Of a stretch of 44,046 nt of DNA, positions 1,423 to 25,942 are shown in pieces (the first letter of the stretch is position 1; each line of letters starts with the position of its first letter). Origin of the DNA: Anaerolineae bacterium (GTDB lineage Bacteria > Chloroflexota > Anaerolineae > Aggregatilineales > Phototrophicaceae). The position numbers and the translations under genes are program-made. The notes under the pieces were generated by a model. That model was not told where the DNA came from. It saw nothing but the letters and a program-made list of their open reading frames with translations, and did no database searches. The DNA is taken from NCBI GenBank assembly GCA_030950085.1, contig JAUZRW010000114.1, positions 1-44,046 of the forward strand, read 5' to 3'.

Positions 1423-1573
1423 TTTTTCTTGGAAGATGAATAAATACCTACTATCTGTACAATTACTGTCAATTTATACGGTATTTACTATCCTAAGCGA
1501 TTAATGTACGGATTTCGTCCTCGTAAAAGCGTGATAATATATAGGCAATCAGTTGTATAGATGGATGCGGCTT

Positions 1574-2119
1574 ATGGTTATTGCTGATAGAACATTTACC
1601 GAAGAAGAATTTGTGCAGTTTGTTCTGCTGCCAGAACATGGAGATATTTCATTTGAACTTATTGGCGAGAGAGCATACTCTACGGTCTCTAACAATCGTT
1701 CATCTCGAATTGCAGCATCTATTGGCATCCTAATTGGTTCGTTTGTGAAACAGAATAATCTTGGCTATGTCACGGGTGCAGATGGCGGTTACGAGGTTTC
1801 TGGACAGCGATATATTCCAGATGTGGCGTTCATGTCAAAAACAAGGCAACCGAATCCATCCAACGAAACGTACAATTCGCAAGCCCCTGATTTAGCGGTT
1901 GAGGTATTATCACCGACTGATGACCCAGCCAATGTGCGAATCAAGCTAACGAATTACCTCTACGCAGGAACAACCGTCTGGATTGTTGACCCCGACGCGG
2001 CAACTGTTGAAATTTACGTCCCGAATAAGTCAGCCATCAGATTATCGAAAGATGATACTATCTCAGGTTTGAGCGTTCTGCCCAGTTTCCAAGTGCCTGT
2101 AACAGACATATTCGACTAA
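1574..2119 (+). CDS. Uma2 family (DUF820) restriction-endonuclease-fold protein
   Basis: The protein has the Uma2/DUF820 layout: an N-terminal TFTEEEFVQF helix, an FELIGER strand, then the PD-(D/E)XK-like core with YIPDVAFMS, the DLAVEVLSP strand bearing the conserved Glu, and KLTNYLYAGTTVWIVDP near residue 135. The family is very abundant in Cyanobacteria and Chloroflexota. It is predicted to be a nuclease, but its biological role is largely unknown. I chose the ATG at 1574, giving 181 residues, because the family usually begins just before the (M/T)(T/S)xEEF segment. An ATG at 1565 and a TTG at 1553 are in the same frame, and no strong ribosome binding site decides between them. It stands alone, without an obvious partner gene. 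Confidence 0.8.
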   Translation: MVIADRTFTEEEFVQFVLLPEHGDISFELIGERAYSTVSNNRSSRIAASIGILIGSFVKQNNLGYVTGADGGYEVSGQRYIPDVAFMSKTRQPNPSNETYNSQAPDLAVEVLSPTDDPANVRIKLTNYLYAGTTVWIVDPDAATVEIYVPNKSAIRLSKDDTISGLSVLPSFQVPVTDIFD

Positions 2120-2155
2120 CCGTGCCAATGTGATGATATTTTAGGAGGGATGACT

Positions 2156-2614
2156 ATGAAACTAGCCGAAGCACTAATTCAACGGGCAGATGCCCAAAAG
2201 CGGATTGAACAACTGCGCCAGCGCCTTGCCCGTAGCGCGAAAGTTCAAGAAGAAGAACAACCACCAGAAGACCCACAAGAACTTCTGCGTGAGGTTGATA
2301 CTGTGATTGCAGAATTGACACGCTTGATTCAGCAAATTAATCGCACGAATGCCACAACGCAATTTGACGACACGCGCACTGTGACTGATGCGCTTGCCGA
2401 ACGGGATACAATCATGCTCAAACGGGGTATGCTGACAGGGTTGATTATCCAAACACAACCGCAGCAACGCTATGGACGCATGGAAATCAAAGAATTGCCA
2501 ACTGTGAATATCGCAGATATTCAAAAACAAGTTGATGGTATTTCGCGTCAGTATCGTGAGCTTGATACCGCTATCCAGCGACTGAACTGGACAATAGACC
2601 TAATTGAAGATTGA
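2156..2614 (+). CDS. DIP1984 family protein
   Basis: This 152-residue, highly charged, probably coiled-coil protein matches the DIP1984 family from its first residues: MKLAEALIQRAD, then EQLRQRL, QINRTNATT, ALAERD and REIDT-like YRELDTAIQRLNW near the C-terminus. The biochemical function is not established. A strong AGGAGGG ribosome binding site lies at 2143-2149. An ATG at 2150 overlaps it, so I start at the ATG at 2156, which has 7-base spacing and matches the family start. The structured RNA candidate at 2668-2764 follows directly on the same strand. From memory, unverified, the family has been noted near RNA-repair or Y-RNA-type loci. Confidence 0.85.
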   Translation: MKLAEALIQRADAQKRIEQLRQRLARSAKVQEEEQPPEDPQELLREVDTVIAELTRLIQQINRTNATTQFDDTRTVTDALAERDTIMLKRGMLTGLIIQTQPQQRYGRMEIKELPTVNIADIQKQVDGISRQYRELDTAIQRLNWTIDLIED

Positions 2615-2667
2615 TTGCAGTCGGTAGTCGTTTTTTACAGGGGTGAACACAAATCGCCAACGGATTA

Positions 2668-2764
2668 CAGTTGGAACACTGGCCTGAAAAGCCATCTTGG
2701 TAACGTGGGGCAACGGAGAGGTTCGACTCCTCATGCACAAATCATGCCAGTAATGTCACAACAG
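2668..2764 (+). ncRNA. tRNA-mimicking structured RNA, Y-RNA-like (candidate)
   Basis: A closing stem pairs ACTGGC (2678-2683) with GCCAGT (2746-2751) and continues, after one mismatch, with TGA (2685-2687) and TCA (2742-2744). Outside it, GTTG (2670-2673) can pair with CAAC (2759-2762) across an internal loop. Inside are two tRNA-like arms. The first is a D-arm-like hairpin, CCAT/GTGG around loop CTTGGTAAC, which carries the GG pair. The second is a T-arm, GAGG/CCTC around loop TTCGACT. There is no acceptor stem or canonical anticodon arm in tRNA order, so it is not a normal tRNA. The architecture recalls bacterial Y RNAs of the YrlA type. No Ro protein gene is visible in the window. Confidence 0.45.
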
Positions 2765-2865
2765 CACTTTACATAGTGCATTGTTATTACCAAGTGTTGA
2801 CCTGTACGCAATGACGAGGGTGGGAATGGGGTCTGCAATCACTCTCGCAATGAGGGAGGCTTTTC

Positions 2866-2908: not shown

Positions 2909-4297
2909 ATGGAATATCATATTTGGACGCTCGGTTGCCAGATGAATGTTGCGGATTCGCAATTGCTGGCAAGTGAACTCGAAAAAATGGGACATAGTGC
3001 CGCCAAAAATCCCGAAGAGGCGGATATCTATGTCGTGAATACCTGCGTTGTGCGCCAAAGTTCGGAAGATAAGGCGTATGGTCGGCTGGGTATCCTCAAG
3101 AATTATAAAGAGCAAAACCCCGAAAAAGTCATCGGCTTGATGGGTTGTCTAGTGGGTGTTAAAGACCCCCTCTATCTACGTAAAAAATTGCCTTATGTCG
3201 ATGTCTTCATGTCGCCCTCTATGCCCGATGCCATGACAGGTTTTCTGCAAGACCGTGTTGGCGAAAAAGAAATCCTCGAAATTGAGGCACAGCAACGCGC
3301 AACCCGTGATAACGTGCAAGATGATGGCATTTTGATTTTGCCAGAACATGAACGCGGCAATATCGTCAGCGCCCATGTGCCGATAGTTTATGGCTGCTCT
3401 CATGCGTGTAGCTTCTGCGTGATTCCTTTCCGACGCGGTGTAGAGCGCAGTCGTCGTGTGGGCGAAATCGTGAATCATGTACGAAGTCTTGCTGAACAGG
3501 GCGTGAAAGAAGTGACGCTGCTCGGTCAGATTGTTGACCGCTACGGCAAAGATGTGCCAGATGGTCCCGATTTGGCAGATTTATTGCGTGTGACCCATGA
3601 TGTTGCGGAAGAAGTCGGCATTGAACGGATTCGCTTCCTGACGAGTCATCCCAATTGGATGAATGACCGTATTTTGGATGCTGTTGCCGAATTGCCGCGT
3701 TTGATGCCTGTCATTGAAGTTCCGGTACAAGCAGGCAATGATGAGGTCTTATCACGGATGCGTCGTGGCTATACCAATGCTCAATATCGCCGTCTGGTCG
3801 AACATATTCGCAACAAAATTCCCAATGTGGCGATTCATACAGATATTATTGTCGGTTTCTGTGGCGAGACTGAAGAGCAATTCATGGATACCTACAAGTT
3901 GCTGCAAGATTTGAAAACTGAGAAAATCCATATTGCGCGTTATAGTCCTCGTCCGCAGACAGTGAGCGAACGGCGTATGGAAGATGATGTGCCAGCAGAA
4001 GAAAAAATGCGCCGCCATCATATGTTAGAAGATTTACACGCCACAATGAGCGCGGAACATAATTCGCAATTTTTAGGACAAACGCTCGAAATTCTTGTAG
4101 AAGACCAGCATAAAGGCAAATGGCGCGGACGGACTCCGCAAAATCGGCTCGTTTTCTTTGAGGCTGATGGTGAGTATAAGGGGCAATTAGTCGATGTTGA
4201 AGTGACATGGACGGGTCCATGGAGTATGCAAGCCCGTTTGCCACAAGCCCCTGTCGGGGTTTTGCCCCGCCTTACACAAAATGATGGCGTGAGATAG
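2909..4297 (+). CDS. miaB: MiaB-type tRNA 2-methylthio-N6-dimethylallyladenosine synthase
   Basis: This methylthiotransferase has the three expected parts. The N-terminal UPF0004 domain has LGCQMN, NTCVVR and GLMGCL providing the three auxiliary-cluster cysteines. The radical SAM core has YGCSHACSFCVIP (CxxxCxxC) near residue 165. A C-terminal TRAM domain covers about residues 375-440. The enzyme would methylthiolate i6A37 in tRNAs reading UNN codons. Where many MiaB proteins have LLGQNVNSYG, this one reads LLGQIVDRYG, so the closely related MtaB or RimO cannot be excluded by eye, although overall similarity favours MiaB. The last 17 residues (446-462) are encoded by an intergenic repeat that has run into the frame. 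Confidence 0.88.
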   Translation: MEYHIWTLGCQMNVADSQLLASELEKMGHSAAKNPEEADIYVVNTCVVRQSSEDKAYGRLGILKNYKEQNPEKVIGLMGCLVGVKDPLYLRKKLPYVDVFMSPSMPDAMTGFLQDRVGEKEILEIEAQQRATRDNVQDDGILILPEHERGNIVSAHVPIVYGCSHACSFCVIPFRRGVERSRRVGEIVNHVRSLAEQGVKEVTLLGQIVDRYGKDVPDGPDLADLLRVTHDVAEEVGIERIRFLTSHPNWMNDRILDAVAELPRLMPVIEVPVQAGNDEVLSRMRRGYTNAQYRRLVEHIRNKIPNVAIHTDIIVGFCGETEEQFMDTYKLLQDLKTEKIHIARYSPRPQTVSERRMEDDVPAEEKMRRHHMLEDLHATMSAEHNSQFLGQTLEILVEDQHKGKWRGRTPQNRLVFFEADGEYKGQLVDVEVTWTGPWSMQARLPQAPVGVLPRLTQNDGVR

Positions 4298-4659: not shown

Positions 4660-5298
4660 ATGCCACCTGAGAGAACAAAAGCTGGATATTATTATCCAAA
4701 CAAATTTGCCCGCATTACCATTGAAGCGATGGAAGAAGTGATGGGTGAGAATGGTCTAAAAGCTATTCTCAACTTGGCGGGACTCTCTGAACTGATTGGT
4801 AACTACCCCCAAGATAACCTTGAAAAAGAATTCGACTTTGCGGACTATACCGCGTTGAATATCGCGCTGGAAGAAATGTACGGTCCGCGTGGTGGTCGTG
4901 GTCTTGCCTTGCGTGCTGGACGTGCAACATTTGCACAAGGCTTGCGTGCGTTTGGTGCGTTGGCAGGTGTGGGTGATCTTGCGTTTAAGGTGTTGCCACT
5001 GAATGCGAAGTTGAAAATTGGTGTACCAGCGATGGCGAACATCTTCTCCCAATTCTCTGACCAAGTATCTAATGTGTTTGATGAAGGCGCAGACAAAATC
5101 ATCTACACGCTAGAACGTTGCCCGATGTGTTGGAACAGAAAAGCTGACCGCGCTGTTTGCTTTGTGGGTCAAGGATTGCTACAAGAAGGCTTGCGTTGGG
5201 TATCGGGCGGTAACGAGTTCAAAGTCGATACCGATACATGCCTCGCAAAAGGTGACGCTATGGGGCGTTACATCATCTATAAAGAGCCGATTAGCTAA
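4660..5298 (+). CDS. V4R domain protein
   Basis: This 212-residue protein ends with a V4R (4-vinyl reductase) domain: the RCPMCWNRKADRAVCF cysteine segment, then GLLQEGLRWVSGG, and FKVDTDTCLAKGD near the C-terminus. V4R domains are small-molecule-binding or metal-binding modules found in bacteriochlorophyll 4-vinyl reductase (BchJ) and in XylR/DmpR-type regulators. Nothing here shows which role applies, and no photosynthesis gene is nearby. The N-terminal half (PNKFARITIEAMEEVMGENG, LNLAGL) is a helical region common to stand-alone V4R proteins of Chloroflexota. A GGAGGT site at 4646-4651 selects the ATG at 4660 over an upstream in-frame start at 4636. It is monocistronic, with its own promoter and terminator. 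Confidence 0.78.
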   Translation: MPPERTKAGYYYPNKFARITIEAMEEVMGENGLKAILNLAGLSELIGNYPQDNLEKEFDFADYTALNIALEEMYGPRGGRGLALRAGRATFAQGLRAFGALAGVGDLAFKVLPLNAKLKIGVPAMANIFSQFSDQVSNVFDEGADKIIYTLERCPMCWNRKADRAVCFVGQGLLQEGLRWVSGGNEFKVDTDTCLAKGDAMGRYIIYKEPIS

Positions 5299-5327
5299 GT
5301 TCGTTTGACCACAATTTCGATATTTGA

Positions 5328-5359
5328 AGTCTCGTTCAGTTTTCTGCCGAGACTTTTTA
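5328..5359 (+). terminator. Intrinsic terminator of the V4R gene
   Basis: AGTCTCG (5328-5334) pairs perfectly with CGAGACT (5348-5354) around a 13-base loop, and is followed by TTTTTAGTTT. It lies 30 bases after the stop codon. Confidence 0.75.
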
Positions 5360-5484
5360 GTTTGTATATTCTATGCCGCAAAGAAACAGTATACCTATCG
5401 CATATTGACCGCGAGTATCTTGTTTCGCCACATGATGATAGAATTTCAGTATGAGATATCTTTTCTACCAAAGGGGAACAAGAC

Positions 5485-25588: not shown

Positions 25589-25661
25589 GGTCCGTTCGTC
25601 TAGTGGCCTAGGATGCCACCCTTTCAAGGTGGAGACACGGGTTCGAACCCCGTACGGACTG
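25589..25661 (+). tRNA. tRNA-Glu (UUC), first copy
   Basis: The 73-base cloverleaf has a 7-bp acceptor stem (GGTCCGT/ACGGACT with a G1-U72 wobble), anticodon stem CCACC/GGTGG around CTTTCAA giving anticodon UUC, T-arm ACGGG/CCCGT with loop TTCGAAC, and discriminator G. CCA is not encoded. Confidence 0.95.
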
Positions 25662-25693
25662 CAATAACTTATTGACCCAACAACAACATTTCT

Positions 25694-25766
25694 GGTCCGT
25701 TCGTCTAGTGGCCTAGGATGCCACCCTTTCAAGGTGGAGACACGGGTTCAAACCCCGTACGGACTG
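25694..25766 (+). tRNA. tRNA-Glu (UUC), second copy
   Basis: It is identical to the first copy except for one T-loop base (TTCAAAC). It has the same UUC anticodon and G1-U72 pair. The upstream spacer of 32 bases lacks the repeat that is present in the following spacer. Confidence 0.95.
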
Positions 25767-25771
25767 CAATA

Positions 25772-25840
25772 ACTTGTTTAATAATCCTGTTTCACCGTAC
25801 AATTTTGTGTAGAGCGCGATGAAACCCCGAAAGGGGCTTT
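25772..25840 (-). repeat. Family A repeat, copy 6, inserted between tRNA-Glu genes
   Basis: Read on the minus strand it starts AAGCCCCTTTCGGGGTTTCAT and CGCGCTCTACACAAAATTG, then jumps to a short form of the right end (TTATTAAACAAG-like). It is about 20 bases shorter than full length. The spacer before it shows the same flanks without this insert. Confidence 0.85.
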
Positions 25841-25862
25841 TTGACCCAAGAACAACACTTTT

Positions 25863-25935
25863 GGTCCGTTCGTCTAGCGGTCTAGGACACCACCCTCTCA
25901 AGGTGGAGACACGGGTTCAAACCCCGTACGGACTG
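25863..25935 (+). tRNA. tRNA-Glu (CUC)
   Basis: It has the same body as the two preceding copies, but the anticodon loop reads CTCTCAA, giving anticodon CUC. The D-loop and one stem region differ by a few bases (GCGGTCTAGGACAC). Acceptor and T-arms are the same and CCA is not encoded. It clearly arose by duplication within the array. Confidence 0.95.
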
Positions 25936-25942
25936 CAACATG

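What the first reader, a model, noticed from the sequence alone, without database searches (positions are those of the whole stretch)
2640..2770. tRNA-mimicking RNA candidate beside a DIP1984 gene, possibly a Y RNA
The 294-base space after the DIP1984 gene is not empty. It contains a T-arm with a canonical TTCGACT loop, a D-arm-like hairpin with a GG-bearing loop, and a closing stem ACTGGC/GCCAGT that wraps both. There is no acceptor stem, so the element looks like a tRNA mimic rather than a tRNA. This matches the general plan of bacterial YrlA-type Y RNAs, which carry a tRNA-like module on a protein-binding stem. The pairing with a DIP1984-family gene of unknown function could define a two-part RNA-protein system without a Ro gene nearby. 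The stems are read directly; the Y RNA identity is inference.
Basis: partly seen in the sequence, partly recalled or inferred. Interest (0 to 1): 0.78.

Follow-up and report, generated by a model that had tools for sequence, protein, structure and literature searches.

The report
Widespread tRNA-mimicking RNA beside DIP1984 genes
Directly after an uncharacterised bacterial gene (DIP1984 family) sits a structured RNA of about 215 bases with tRNA-like arms; the same RNA follows this gene in at least six bacterial phyla, sometimes inside tRNA-gene arrays or beside RNA-repair genes, so it is probably an unrecognised RNA-protein partnership.

Summary
A covariance model finds it in exactly the 14 of 61 related genomes that carry DIP1984 (0 of 47 without), in 79 of 80 named DIP1984 loci (Chloroflexota, Cyanobacteria, Bacillota, Acidobacteriota, Gammaproteobacteria) and 6 of 6 further plasmid loci, four of them actinobacterial. 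On 45 alignable copies 34 of 38 pairs, two pseudoknots included, change on both sides. No Rfam family reaches its threshold.

The T-arm is real and recurrent (32 of 93 copies; 7 of 3720 shuffles); an anticodon-arm-like hairpin also occurs. It is not YrlA, and no Ro gene was found in this genome.

Some copies lie near rtcB (8 of 80 loci; also an Acinetobacter rtcB-X-DIP1984-RNA-rtcA order) or in long tRNA arrays; most do not. Best reading: a trans-acting tRNA mimic that works with DIP1984 in a Ro/Y-RNA-like particle for damaged tRNAs or translation stress. RNA and linkage are shown; transcription, binding and function are inferred.

The parts
2150..2614 (+). DIP1984 family gene (PF20935 DUF6847; likely start ATG 2156, MKLAEAL), presumed protein partner
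   Evidence: Pfam E 3.6e-52, NCBIfam NF038048 E 1.5e-54; AF2 model of four helices, pLDDT 95; PDB 3kdq is a homologue
2618..2832 (+). Whole structured RNA (R1 model hit, model 1-203)
   Evidence: 143.8 bits, E 2.4e-40; this sequence is one of the 45 in the model. Alignment A3
2623..2626 (+). Conserved GGUA, could pair with UACC 2788-2791
   Evidence: 91.7% of cells pair but no compensatory change, so untested by covariation
2627..2632 (+). P1 5' strand GTCGTT
   Evidence: pairs with 2810-2815; 5 of 6 pairs with two-sided change in the family
2810..2815 (+). P1 3' strand AATGAC
2635..2641 (+). P2 5' strand TTACAGG
   Evidence: opposite 2801-2807; 7 of 7 pairs with two-sided change in the family. 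In the window the outermost pair (T2635-C2807) is not standard
2801..2807 (+). P2 3' strand CCTGTAC
2642..2645 (+). Internal-loop motif GGUG (family RGYG) opposite GA 2799-2800; U2644 pairs G2799
   Evidence: the pyrimidine covaries with the purine opposite: CG 35, UA 8, UG 2 of 45
2646..2650 (+). P3 5' strand AACAC
   Evidence: pairs with GTGTT 2794-2798; two-sided changes in the family
2794..2798 (+). P3 3' strand GTGTT
2652..2666 (+). PK1a: AATC 2652-2655 with GATT 2663-2666
   Evidence: 3 of 3 pairs with two-sided change in the family; window letters, as this row is shifted by a gap in the alignment
2657..2674 (+). PK1b pseudoknot: CCAAC 2657-2661 with GTTGG 2670-2674
   Evidence: 5 of 5 pairs with two-sided change, 70.6% of cells paired
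2680..2694 (+). Anticodon-arm-like hairpin TGGC-CTGAAAA-GCCA (loop reads as GAA)
   Evidence: such hairpins in 19 of 93 copies against 126 of 3720 shuffles
2704..2715 (+). P6 hairpin CGT-GGGGCA-ACG (3 bp here)
   Evidence: 5 of 5 family pairs with two-sided change, 88.3% of cells paired
2709..2711 (+). PK2 5' strand GGC (P6 loop), pairs with GCC 2746-2748
   Evidence: 95% of cells paired, 2 of 4 pairs with two-sided change
2746..2748 (+). PK2 3' strand GCC
2718..2732 (+). T-arm GAGG-TTCGACT-CCTC
   Evidence: sequence; 98.5% of cells paired in the 33 of 45 rows with letters there (two pairs counted, one with two-sided change); enrichment
2816..2831 (+). Conserved 3' tail GAGGGTGGGAATGGGG
   Evidence: GAGGG.GGG downstream in 14 of 14, 18 of 19 and 14 of 15 Chloroflexota loci; absent from the two Acinetobacter copies read
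2842..2858 (+). Possible weak terminator after the RNA
   Evidence: consensus scan only, 3 found in the region against 0.7 expected; in the family 25 of 92 copies have a terminator-like hairpin within 120 nt against 45 of 460 shuffles

Best explanation
The DIP1984 gene and the RNA right after it form a two-part system. The RNA is a separate, trans-acting non-coding RNA of about 200 bases. Its ends make a long stem with a conserved asymmetric internal loop; its middle carries a tRNA-like set (pseudoknotted D-side hairpin, sometimes an anticodon-like arm, a variable-arm-like hairpin whose loop pairs with GCC, often a T-arm) without an acceptor stem. DIP1984, a helical protein, most likely binds the RNA, probably through the conserved stem or loop. 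The particle would act on damaged or non-functional tRNAs when translation is under stress: the tRNA-like part lets it be recognised by, or compete for, enzymes that handle tRNAs (ligases such as RtcB, nucleases, modification enzymes), as proposed for Ro-Y RNA particles. SHOWN: RNA structure by covariation, linkage to the gene, distribution, tRNA-like arms, occurrence of some copies in tRNA arrays and near RtcB. INFERRED: transcription, trans action, binding, and function.
For: Mutual information on a sequence-only alignment: 17 of the top 20 column pairs, among them all of the top 11, belong to P1, P2, P3, P6 or PK1. 91.4% of cells paired, 310 two-sided cells against 39-85 in slid controls, 0 of 500 shuffles. 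RNA in 14 of 14 DIP1984+ and 0 of 47 other relatives; in all 17 genomes with a DIP1984 match (16 over the cut-off) of 251 in the phylum, adjacent in 16. 79 of 80 named loci, same strand, median 7 nt after the stop; 6 of 6 further plasmid loci. T-arm and anticodon-like arm enrichment; ARAGORN calls one copy's core a tRNA-Cys (L079; 1 of 30 loci, 0 of 53). RtcB in the fetched flanks (up to 3.5 kb each side) of 8 of 80; rtcB-X-DIP1984-RNA-rtcA in a record labelled Acinetobacter phage (RNA E 0.0028). L081: 20 tRNAs, RNA ligase with tRNA-binding domain, DIP1984, RNA, RtcB; L092: DIP1984, RNA, RsgA, RtcB. 11 of 80 loci have 2-27 tRNA calls, all on the strand of DIP1984. Copies with no DIP1984 nearby, a tandem pair and an extra copy argue for trans action. 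PMC7652931 (passages): rtcB and the gene directly after it are the most tigecycline-induced genes of A. baumannii AB0057 (252-fold). PMC10272220 (passages): the Anabaena tRNA operon, rtcB and rsgA share a repressor released by translation stress.
Against: No expression or binding data here. DIP1984 is acidic in 5 of 6 examples (window pI 5.1). RtcB does not co-occur with DIP1984 among the relatives: 8 of 14 with, 31 of 47 without; it is absent from the flanks of 72 of 80 loci, and neighbours sampled elsewhere include an arsenic pump, a glycosidase and a transporter. 69 of 80 loci have fewer than 2 tRNAs nearby. T-arm in about a third and anticodon-like arm in about a fifth of copies, of which 11 of 19 at the same place, so tRNA mimicry may be optional. 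Folding energy is unremarkable. The expression papers, as far as read, did not test this RNA or DIP1984.
Confidence: 0.58

Rival explanations
1. Decoy: the RNA itself is a sacrificial tRNA mimic that ties up anticodon nucleases or tRNA-modifying enzymes, and DIP1984 only stabilises it.
For: Anticodon-like loops, most often GUU (5), then GAA, GUA, GCU (2 each) and others, on stems of 4 bp or more; T-arm; some neighbourhoods with tRNA arrays and ligases. PMC7790460 (passages) proposes a competitive-inhibitor role for YrlA's tRNA-like domain.
Against: Anticodon-like arm in only 19 of 93 copies; the best conserved parts are the basal stem, the loops and the G-rich tail, not the tRNA-like arms.
Confidence: 0.18
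2. Cis element: a 3'-UTR structure or tRNA sensor (T-box-like) that controls DIP1984 mRNA stability or downstream genes.
For: Co-oriented and close behind DIP1984 in the 79 named loci with a hit (median 7 nt); terminator-like hairpins follow in 25 of 92 copies against 45 of 460 shuffles.
Against: Downstream genes differ (MiaB type in the window, RtcB, RsgA, RtcA, YcaO elsewhere); a tandem pair (L063), an extra copy (L106) and copies with no DIP1984 nearby (L154, L155) exist.
Confidence: 0.13
3. Plasmid or island maintenance module (RNA-protein addiction pair).
For: 372 of 72,556 plasmid records match DIP1984, 343 of them Acinetobacter; patchy distribution, 25 of 298 genomes in the class.
Against: Some named copies are on chromosomes (L089 and L135 by title); no toxin-like feature noted; unlike the repeat RNAs of type III toxin-antitoxin pairs (recalled).
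Confidence: 0.05
4. A decayed tRNA, or an ordinary YrlA RNA of a Ro protein.
For: T-arm; weak tRNA-Sec score, 15.4 bits.
Against: Extensive compensatory change across phyla; no Rfam tRNA or YrlA match at threshold on the element in the loci scanned; TROVE in only 3 of 14 DIP1984+ genomes and not in this one.
Confidence: 0.02

Closest known systems
YrlA-type bacterial Y RNA with Rsr (Ro60/TROVE), Rfam RF02553
   Same: Non-coding RNA next to its presumed protein gene; tRNA-like part on a basal stem; encoded with rtcB/rtcA in some bacteria (PMC7790460, PMC8394870, passages)
   Different: No YrlA model match; two pseudoknots, extra 3' domain and G-rich tail; protein is DIP1984, not TROVE; 11 of 14 DIP1984+ relatives have no TROVE match
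tmRNA-SmpB
   Same: tRNA-like RNA with a dedicated small protein, translation stress (recalled)
   Different: No acceptor stem; no tmRNA called by ARAGORN; a tag reading frame was not looked for
Long tRNA arrays (L-arrays) of cyanobacteria and their stress regulon
   Same: Some copies lie beside or inside tRNA arrays with rtcB nearby, one further copy has rsgA and rtcB
   Different: The RNA is not a tRNA, and 69 of 80 named loci have fewer than 2 tRNAs
'Novel tRNA-like molecule' of SPFH/Band-7 RNA-repair systems (Burroughs and Aravind 2016; abstract recalled, paper not held)
   Same: tRNA-like RNA as partner of a non-catalytic protein in RNA-repair contexts
   Different: Partner there is Band-7; no SPFH domain among the 20 neighbour proteins tested from 12 loci. 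Whether that RNA is this one could not be checked

Membership tests
YrlA / bacterial Y RNA | Matches the Rfam YrlA covariance model | tested here: not met
   No hit on the element at E<=10 in the window, nor in 14 loci at E<=5 (one of them the window's own copy) or 9 loci at E<=10; the YrlA hits listed there overlap tRNA genes
YrlA / bacterial Y RNA | Encoded with a Ro/Rsr (TROVE) protein | tested here: not met
   No PF05731 match in the home genome; 3 of 14 DIP1984+ relatives have one
YrlA / bacterial Y RNA | Bound by Ro/Rsr | not testable with these tools
   Needs a binding experiment
YrlA / bacterial Y RNA | tRNA-like module with D, T and acceptor-type arms | tested here: inconclusive
   T-arm in 32 of 93, anticodon-like arm in 19 of 93; D-side is a pseudoknot; no acceptor stem found
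YrlA / bacterial Y RNA | Ro-binding stem motif (GNCGAAN0-1G, recalled) | not tested
   The RGYGARYRC loop-stem looks alike in some copies (e.g. GGCGAACG in L006), but the motif is recalled and was not scored
YrlA / bacterial Y RNA | Neighbourhood with RtcB/RtcA | tested here: inconclusive
   RtcB in the flanks of 8 of 80 loci and an rtcB-rtcA order in one Acinetobacter-labelled record; none among the 6 window proteins tested by Pfam, and the home genome's RtcB is on another contig
tRNA | Recognised by tRNA models, acceptor stem present | tested here: not met
   one exception among relatives, L079, called tRNA-Cys by ARAGORN
DIP1984 family (NF038048 / PF20935) | Scores above the curated cut-offs | tested here: met
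   184.2 bits against 70; 176.5 against 27
The RNA family described here (model R1) | Full-length covariance match directly downstream of DIP1984 | tested here: met
   Window 2618-2832, model 1-203; the window copy is in the model by construction

The most novel reading that the evidence does not exclude
A previously undescribed class of bacterial RNP, present in at least six phyla: a double-pseudoknot, tRNA-mimicking RNA with DIP1984 as dedicated partner, serving as a Ro-independent counterpart of the Ro-Y RNA machine that recognises cleaved tRNAs and feeds RtcB or other ligases during translation stress.
Probability: 0.4. Interest if true: 0.93.

Novelty: categorically new. Interest (0 to 1): 0.86.

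Why it matters
It gives a first lead to the function of a common protein family without known function (annotated 'septicolysin' in some plasmid records; solved structure 3kdq) and describes a structured RNA that no Rfam 15 model matched at threshold in the 23 copies scanned. If the partnership is real, bacteria have a second tRNA-mimic RNP besides Ro-Y RNA, with ties to RNA repair, tRNA arrays and perhaps the response to ribosome-targeting antibiotics. DIP1984 is on 343 Acinetobacter plasmid records, so it may matter in clinical strains too. The prediction (a discrete RNA of about 200 nt bound by DIP1984) can be tested directly.

Tried and rejected
Decayed tRNA and plain YrlA: rejected. Folding energy of the single sequence: uninformative. 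RNAalifold on 90 divergent copies gave only P1-P3 because the middle was misaligned; I then chose 45 alignable copies of 123 by hand for A3, so pair counts describe the alignable part of the family. The 123 come from 135 downstream regions; 12 were dropped before counting because my end anchors failed (L025, L031, L045, L047, L050, L052-L055, L067, L085, L102), of which 8 do have a model hit. Viral contigs: 3 pattern matches, none a DIP1984 relative. Phage records: 18 matches; 13 Vibrio phage hits cover only 36 residues and the one read shows no RNA; H1, H3 and H5 were not followed. An obligate partnership with RtcB: rejected for these relatives. GGUA/UACC pairing cannot be tested by covariation. 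Defence library: for DIP1984 only weak matches (HEC-07 E 4.6e-5, ZorA E 6e-4). Foldseek: only 3kdq is significant. Literature: 'DIP1984' is in 1 paper, 'septicolysin' in 24 (20 listed, titles only, none on an RNA); other searches. Not held: the Y RNA and RNA-repair papers and the L-array paper, so prior description there cannot be excluded.

Full report
What was asked. The gene is confirmed: 2150-2614 matches PF20935 (E 3.6e-52) and NCBIfam DIP1984 (E 1.5e-54). The next gene (2909-4297) has Radical_SAM, UPF0004 and TRAM domains, the MiaB type (label recalled).

The T-arm GAGG-TTCGACT-CCTC lies at 2718-2732. No tRNA is called, and Rfam finds nothing here at its thresholds; at E<=10 it lists tRNA-Sec with 15.4 bits (gathering 47) and a snoRNA family. 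Folding energy is unremarkable (z -1.09 for 2640-2770; -1.47 for the whole spacer). From the window alone the finding would be weak.

Relatives make it strong. PF20935 occurs in 14 of 61 related genomes. In all 14 the sequence after the stop codon carries a conserved segment ending GAGGGTGGGnnnGGGG (13 exact, L014 with GAGGGCGGG). The class search gave 25 of 298 genomes: of its 19 new loci, 18 show GAGGG.GGG downstream and one ends 5 bases after the stop. The phylum search gave 17 of 251 (one, G342, is a 24-residue match below the cut-off): of its 15 new loci 14 show the motif and one has a run of N. Beyond the phylum I read the element by eye after DIP1984 in Picosynechococcus, Streptomyces and Paracoccus, and without the full G-rich tail in Acinetobacter and Enterococcus. 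A scan of 84,980 species with one pattern (MKLAEAL[IVL]xR) gave 538 DIP1984 relatives, of which the best 80 were kept; this favours close relatives of the query. By title they include Chloroflexi, Cyanobacteria, Bacillota, Acidobacteria and Gammaproteobacteria.

Structure. From 123 extracted copies I chose 45 alignable ones and aligned them by sequence only (A3). In APC-corrected mutual information 17 of the top 20 column pairs, and all of the top 11, belong to P1, P2, P3, P6 or PK1; three of the 20 are unexplained (130-251, 213-242, 185-219), and PK2, which varies little, is not in the 60 listed. Written out as 38 pairs, 91.4% of cells pair, 34 pairs have changes on both sides, with 310 two-sided cells; slid controls have 29-41% and 39-85 cells; 0 of 500 shuffles reach the observed values. 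The structure was derived from these sequences and they are related, both of which favour it; pair types (103 against 50-70 slid) point the same way. The pair across the internal loop is C-G 35, U-A 8, U-G 2 of 45. PK1b is the weakest helix (70.6% paired), probably because some copies have an extra base.

tRNA mimicry. In 93 non-redundant copies, 32 have a T-arm of 4 bp or more with a TTCRANY loop (7 of 3720 dinucleotide shuffles) and 19 have a YUNNNRA seven-base loop on 4 bp or more (126 of 3720, so about 3 expected); 7 have both, the window among them. 11 of the 19 loops start at positions 63-70 of the copy, the place of the window's; the rest lie elsewhere and may be chance. The window's loop CTGAAAA (2684-2690) reads as GAA; over the 19 the readings are GUU 5, GAA 2, GUA 2, GCU 2 and eight single ones. 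ARAGORN takes the core of one copy (L079) for a tRNA-Cys (1 of 30 loci; 0 of 53). The order is D-side pseudoknot, anticodon-like arm, variable-arm-like hairpin, T-arm, without acceptor stem.

Linkage. Model R1 (203 positions) hits exactly the 14 DIP1984+ genomes of 61. In 251 phylum genomes it hits 19: all 17 with a DIP1984 match (in G557 the RNA found is on another contig); G435, a draft genome, with an RNA (E 7e-16) beside a short-chain dehydrogenase gene and no DIP1984 found; and G357, a weak hit (E 0.005). Of loci L001-L055, 52 of 55 have a hit at E<=0.1; the misses are the contig end, the N run and the partial Vibrio phage hit; several hits are weak (L032 0.0015, L033 0.019, L050 0.0003, L054 0.0028). 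Of the 80 named loci 79 have a hit; L102 has none in the 220 bases before its contig ends. In these 79 the RNA starts 2-279 bases after the stop, median 7. L063 has two tandem copies and L106 a second, shorter match. All 6 further plasmid loci have it: Streptantibioticus, Streptomyces, Mycobacterium, Mycolicibacterium, Psychrobacter, Enterococcus (E from 3e-26 to 4e-7); the Streptomyces and Enterococcus ones are close to loci seen before.

Not a Ro system. TROVE has no match in the home genome; it occurs in 3 of 14 DIP1984+ and 11 of 47 other relatives.

Neighbourhoods. In a record labelled Acinetobacter phage MD-2021a the order is rtcB, a 166-aa protein without Pfam match, DIP1984, RNA, rtcA. 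RtcB lies in the flanks of 8 of 80 named loci (tblastn; Pfam confirms the three tested): shortly after the RNA in L072, L078, L079, L081 and L094 (gaps 87-348 bases), after RsgA in L092, before DIP1984 in L096, further off in L116. 11 of 80 loci have 2-27 tRNA calls, all on the strand of DIP1984 (L079's 15 include the RNA itself, and a few calls have no clear anticodon). L081 reads: 20 tRNAs, an RNA ligase (PF09414) with a tRNA-binding domain, DIP1984, the RNA, RtcB. Against a strict partnership: RtcB is in 8 of 14 DIP1984+ and 31 of 47 other relatives (the home genome has one, on another contig), and neighbours sampled at other loci are unrelated (arsenic pump, glycosidase, transporter; 20 proteins from 12 loci tested).

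Literature context. PMC7652931 (passages): tigecycline induces rtcB and the gene directly downstream 252-fold in A. baumannii AB0057; I did not check that this gene is the one seen in L054. PMC9741440 (passages): minocycline raises an RtcB family gene. PMC10272220 (passages): TrcR represses the Anabaena tRNA operon, rtcB and rsgA, and translation stress releases them. The passages read mention neither DIP1984 nor this RNA. Joining these reports to DIP1984-RNA is my inference.

Protein. AF2 gives four helices, pLDDT 95; the only significant fold match is 3kdq from Corynebacterium diphtheriae, function unknown. Invariant residues in 32 sequences include R10, R23, Q31, N62, N65, R83, D84, E110, R134, Q141, N144. 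The protein is acidic in 5 of 6 examples, which does not favour broad RNA binding but allows a specific site.

Mechanism and verdict. Shown: a structured RNA family tied to DIP1984, with optional tRNA-like arms. Inferred: transcription (terminator-like hairpins follow in 25 of 92 copies against 45 of 460 shuffles), a DIP1984-RNA particle, and a role in tRNA damage or translation stress. It works most like Ro-Y RNA but fails membership (no YrlA match, no Ro). I rate it categorically new at the level of the RNA-protein pair, with the reservation that key papers could not be read.

Noticed in passing
window 2909-4297: A MiaB-type gene follows the RNA; a homologous gene lies downstream in 5 of 80 named loci (L062, L069, L084, L093, L110; L062 copy checked by Pfam). 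MiaB acts on A37 next to the anticodon (recalled), which is curious beside an anticodon-arm mimic.
   Followed up: partly
L154:1767-1962 (-), L155:1939-2129 (+): Copies of the RNA without a DIP1984 gene nearby, the L155 copy with a T-arm-like GGGTTCGAATCC; possible stand-alone trans-acting copies.
   Followed up: partly
L063:1613-1818 and 1855-2052; L106:3976-4162 and 5281-5411: Two copies of the RNA in one locus, tandem in L063.
   Followed up: no
L081:2006-3415: RNA ligase (PF09414) with a tRNA-binding domain (PF01588) between a 20-tRNA array and DIP1984; looks like a tRNA-repair island.
   Followed up: partly
L054:981-1481: A 166-aa protein without Pfam or NCBIfam match between rtcB and DIP1984.
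   Followed up: partly
plasmid records: DIP1984 is on 343 Acinetobacter plasmid records of 372 matching records; the one checked (L050) has a weak model hit (E 0.0003). PMC10889530 (passage) lists a DIP1984 gene on OXA-24/40 plasmids.
   Followed up: partly
L116:5618-7456: RtcB with an intein-splicing domain.
   Followed up: no
window 2623-2626 and 2788-2791: GGUA and UACC are almost invariant and complementary; a third pseudoknot is possible but covariation cannot test it.
   Followed up: yes
window 1565-2119: Uma2 family gene (PF05685; PADLOC PDC-S03 E 5e-15) just upstream of DIP1984; a Uma2 gene is also near the pair in Streptomyces L164.
   Followed up: no
window 25589-25936: Three tRNA-Glu genes in a row (TTC, TTC, CTC).
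   Followed up: no
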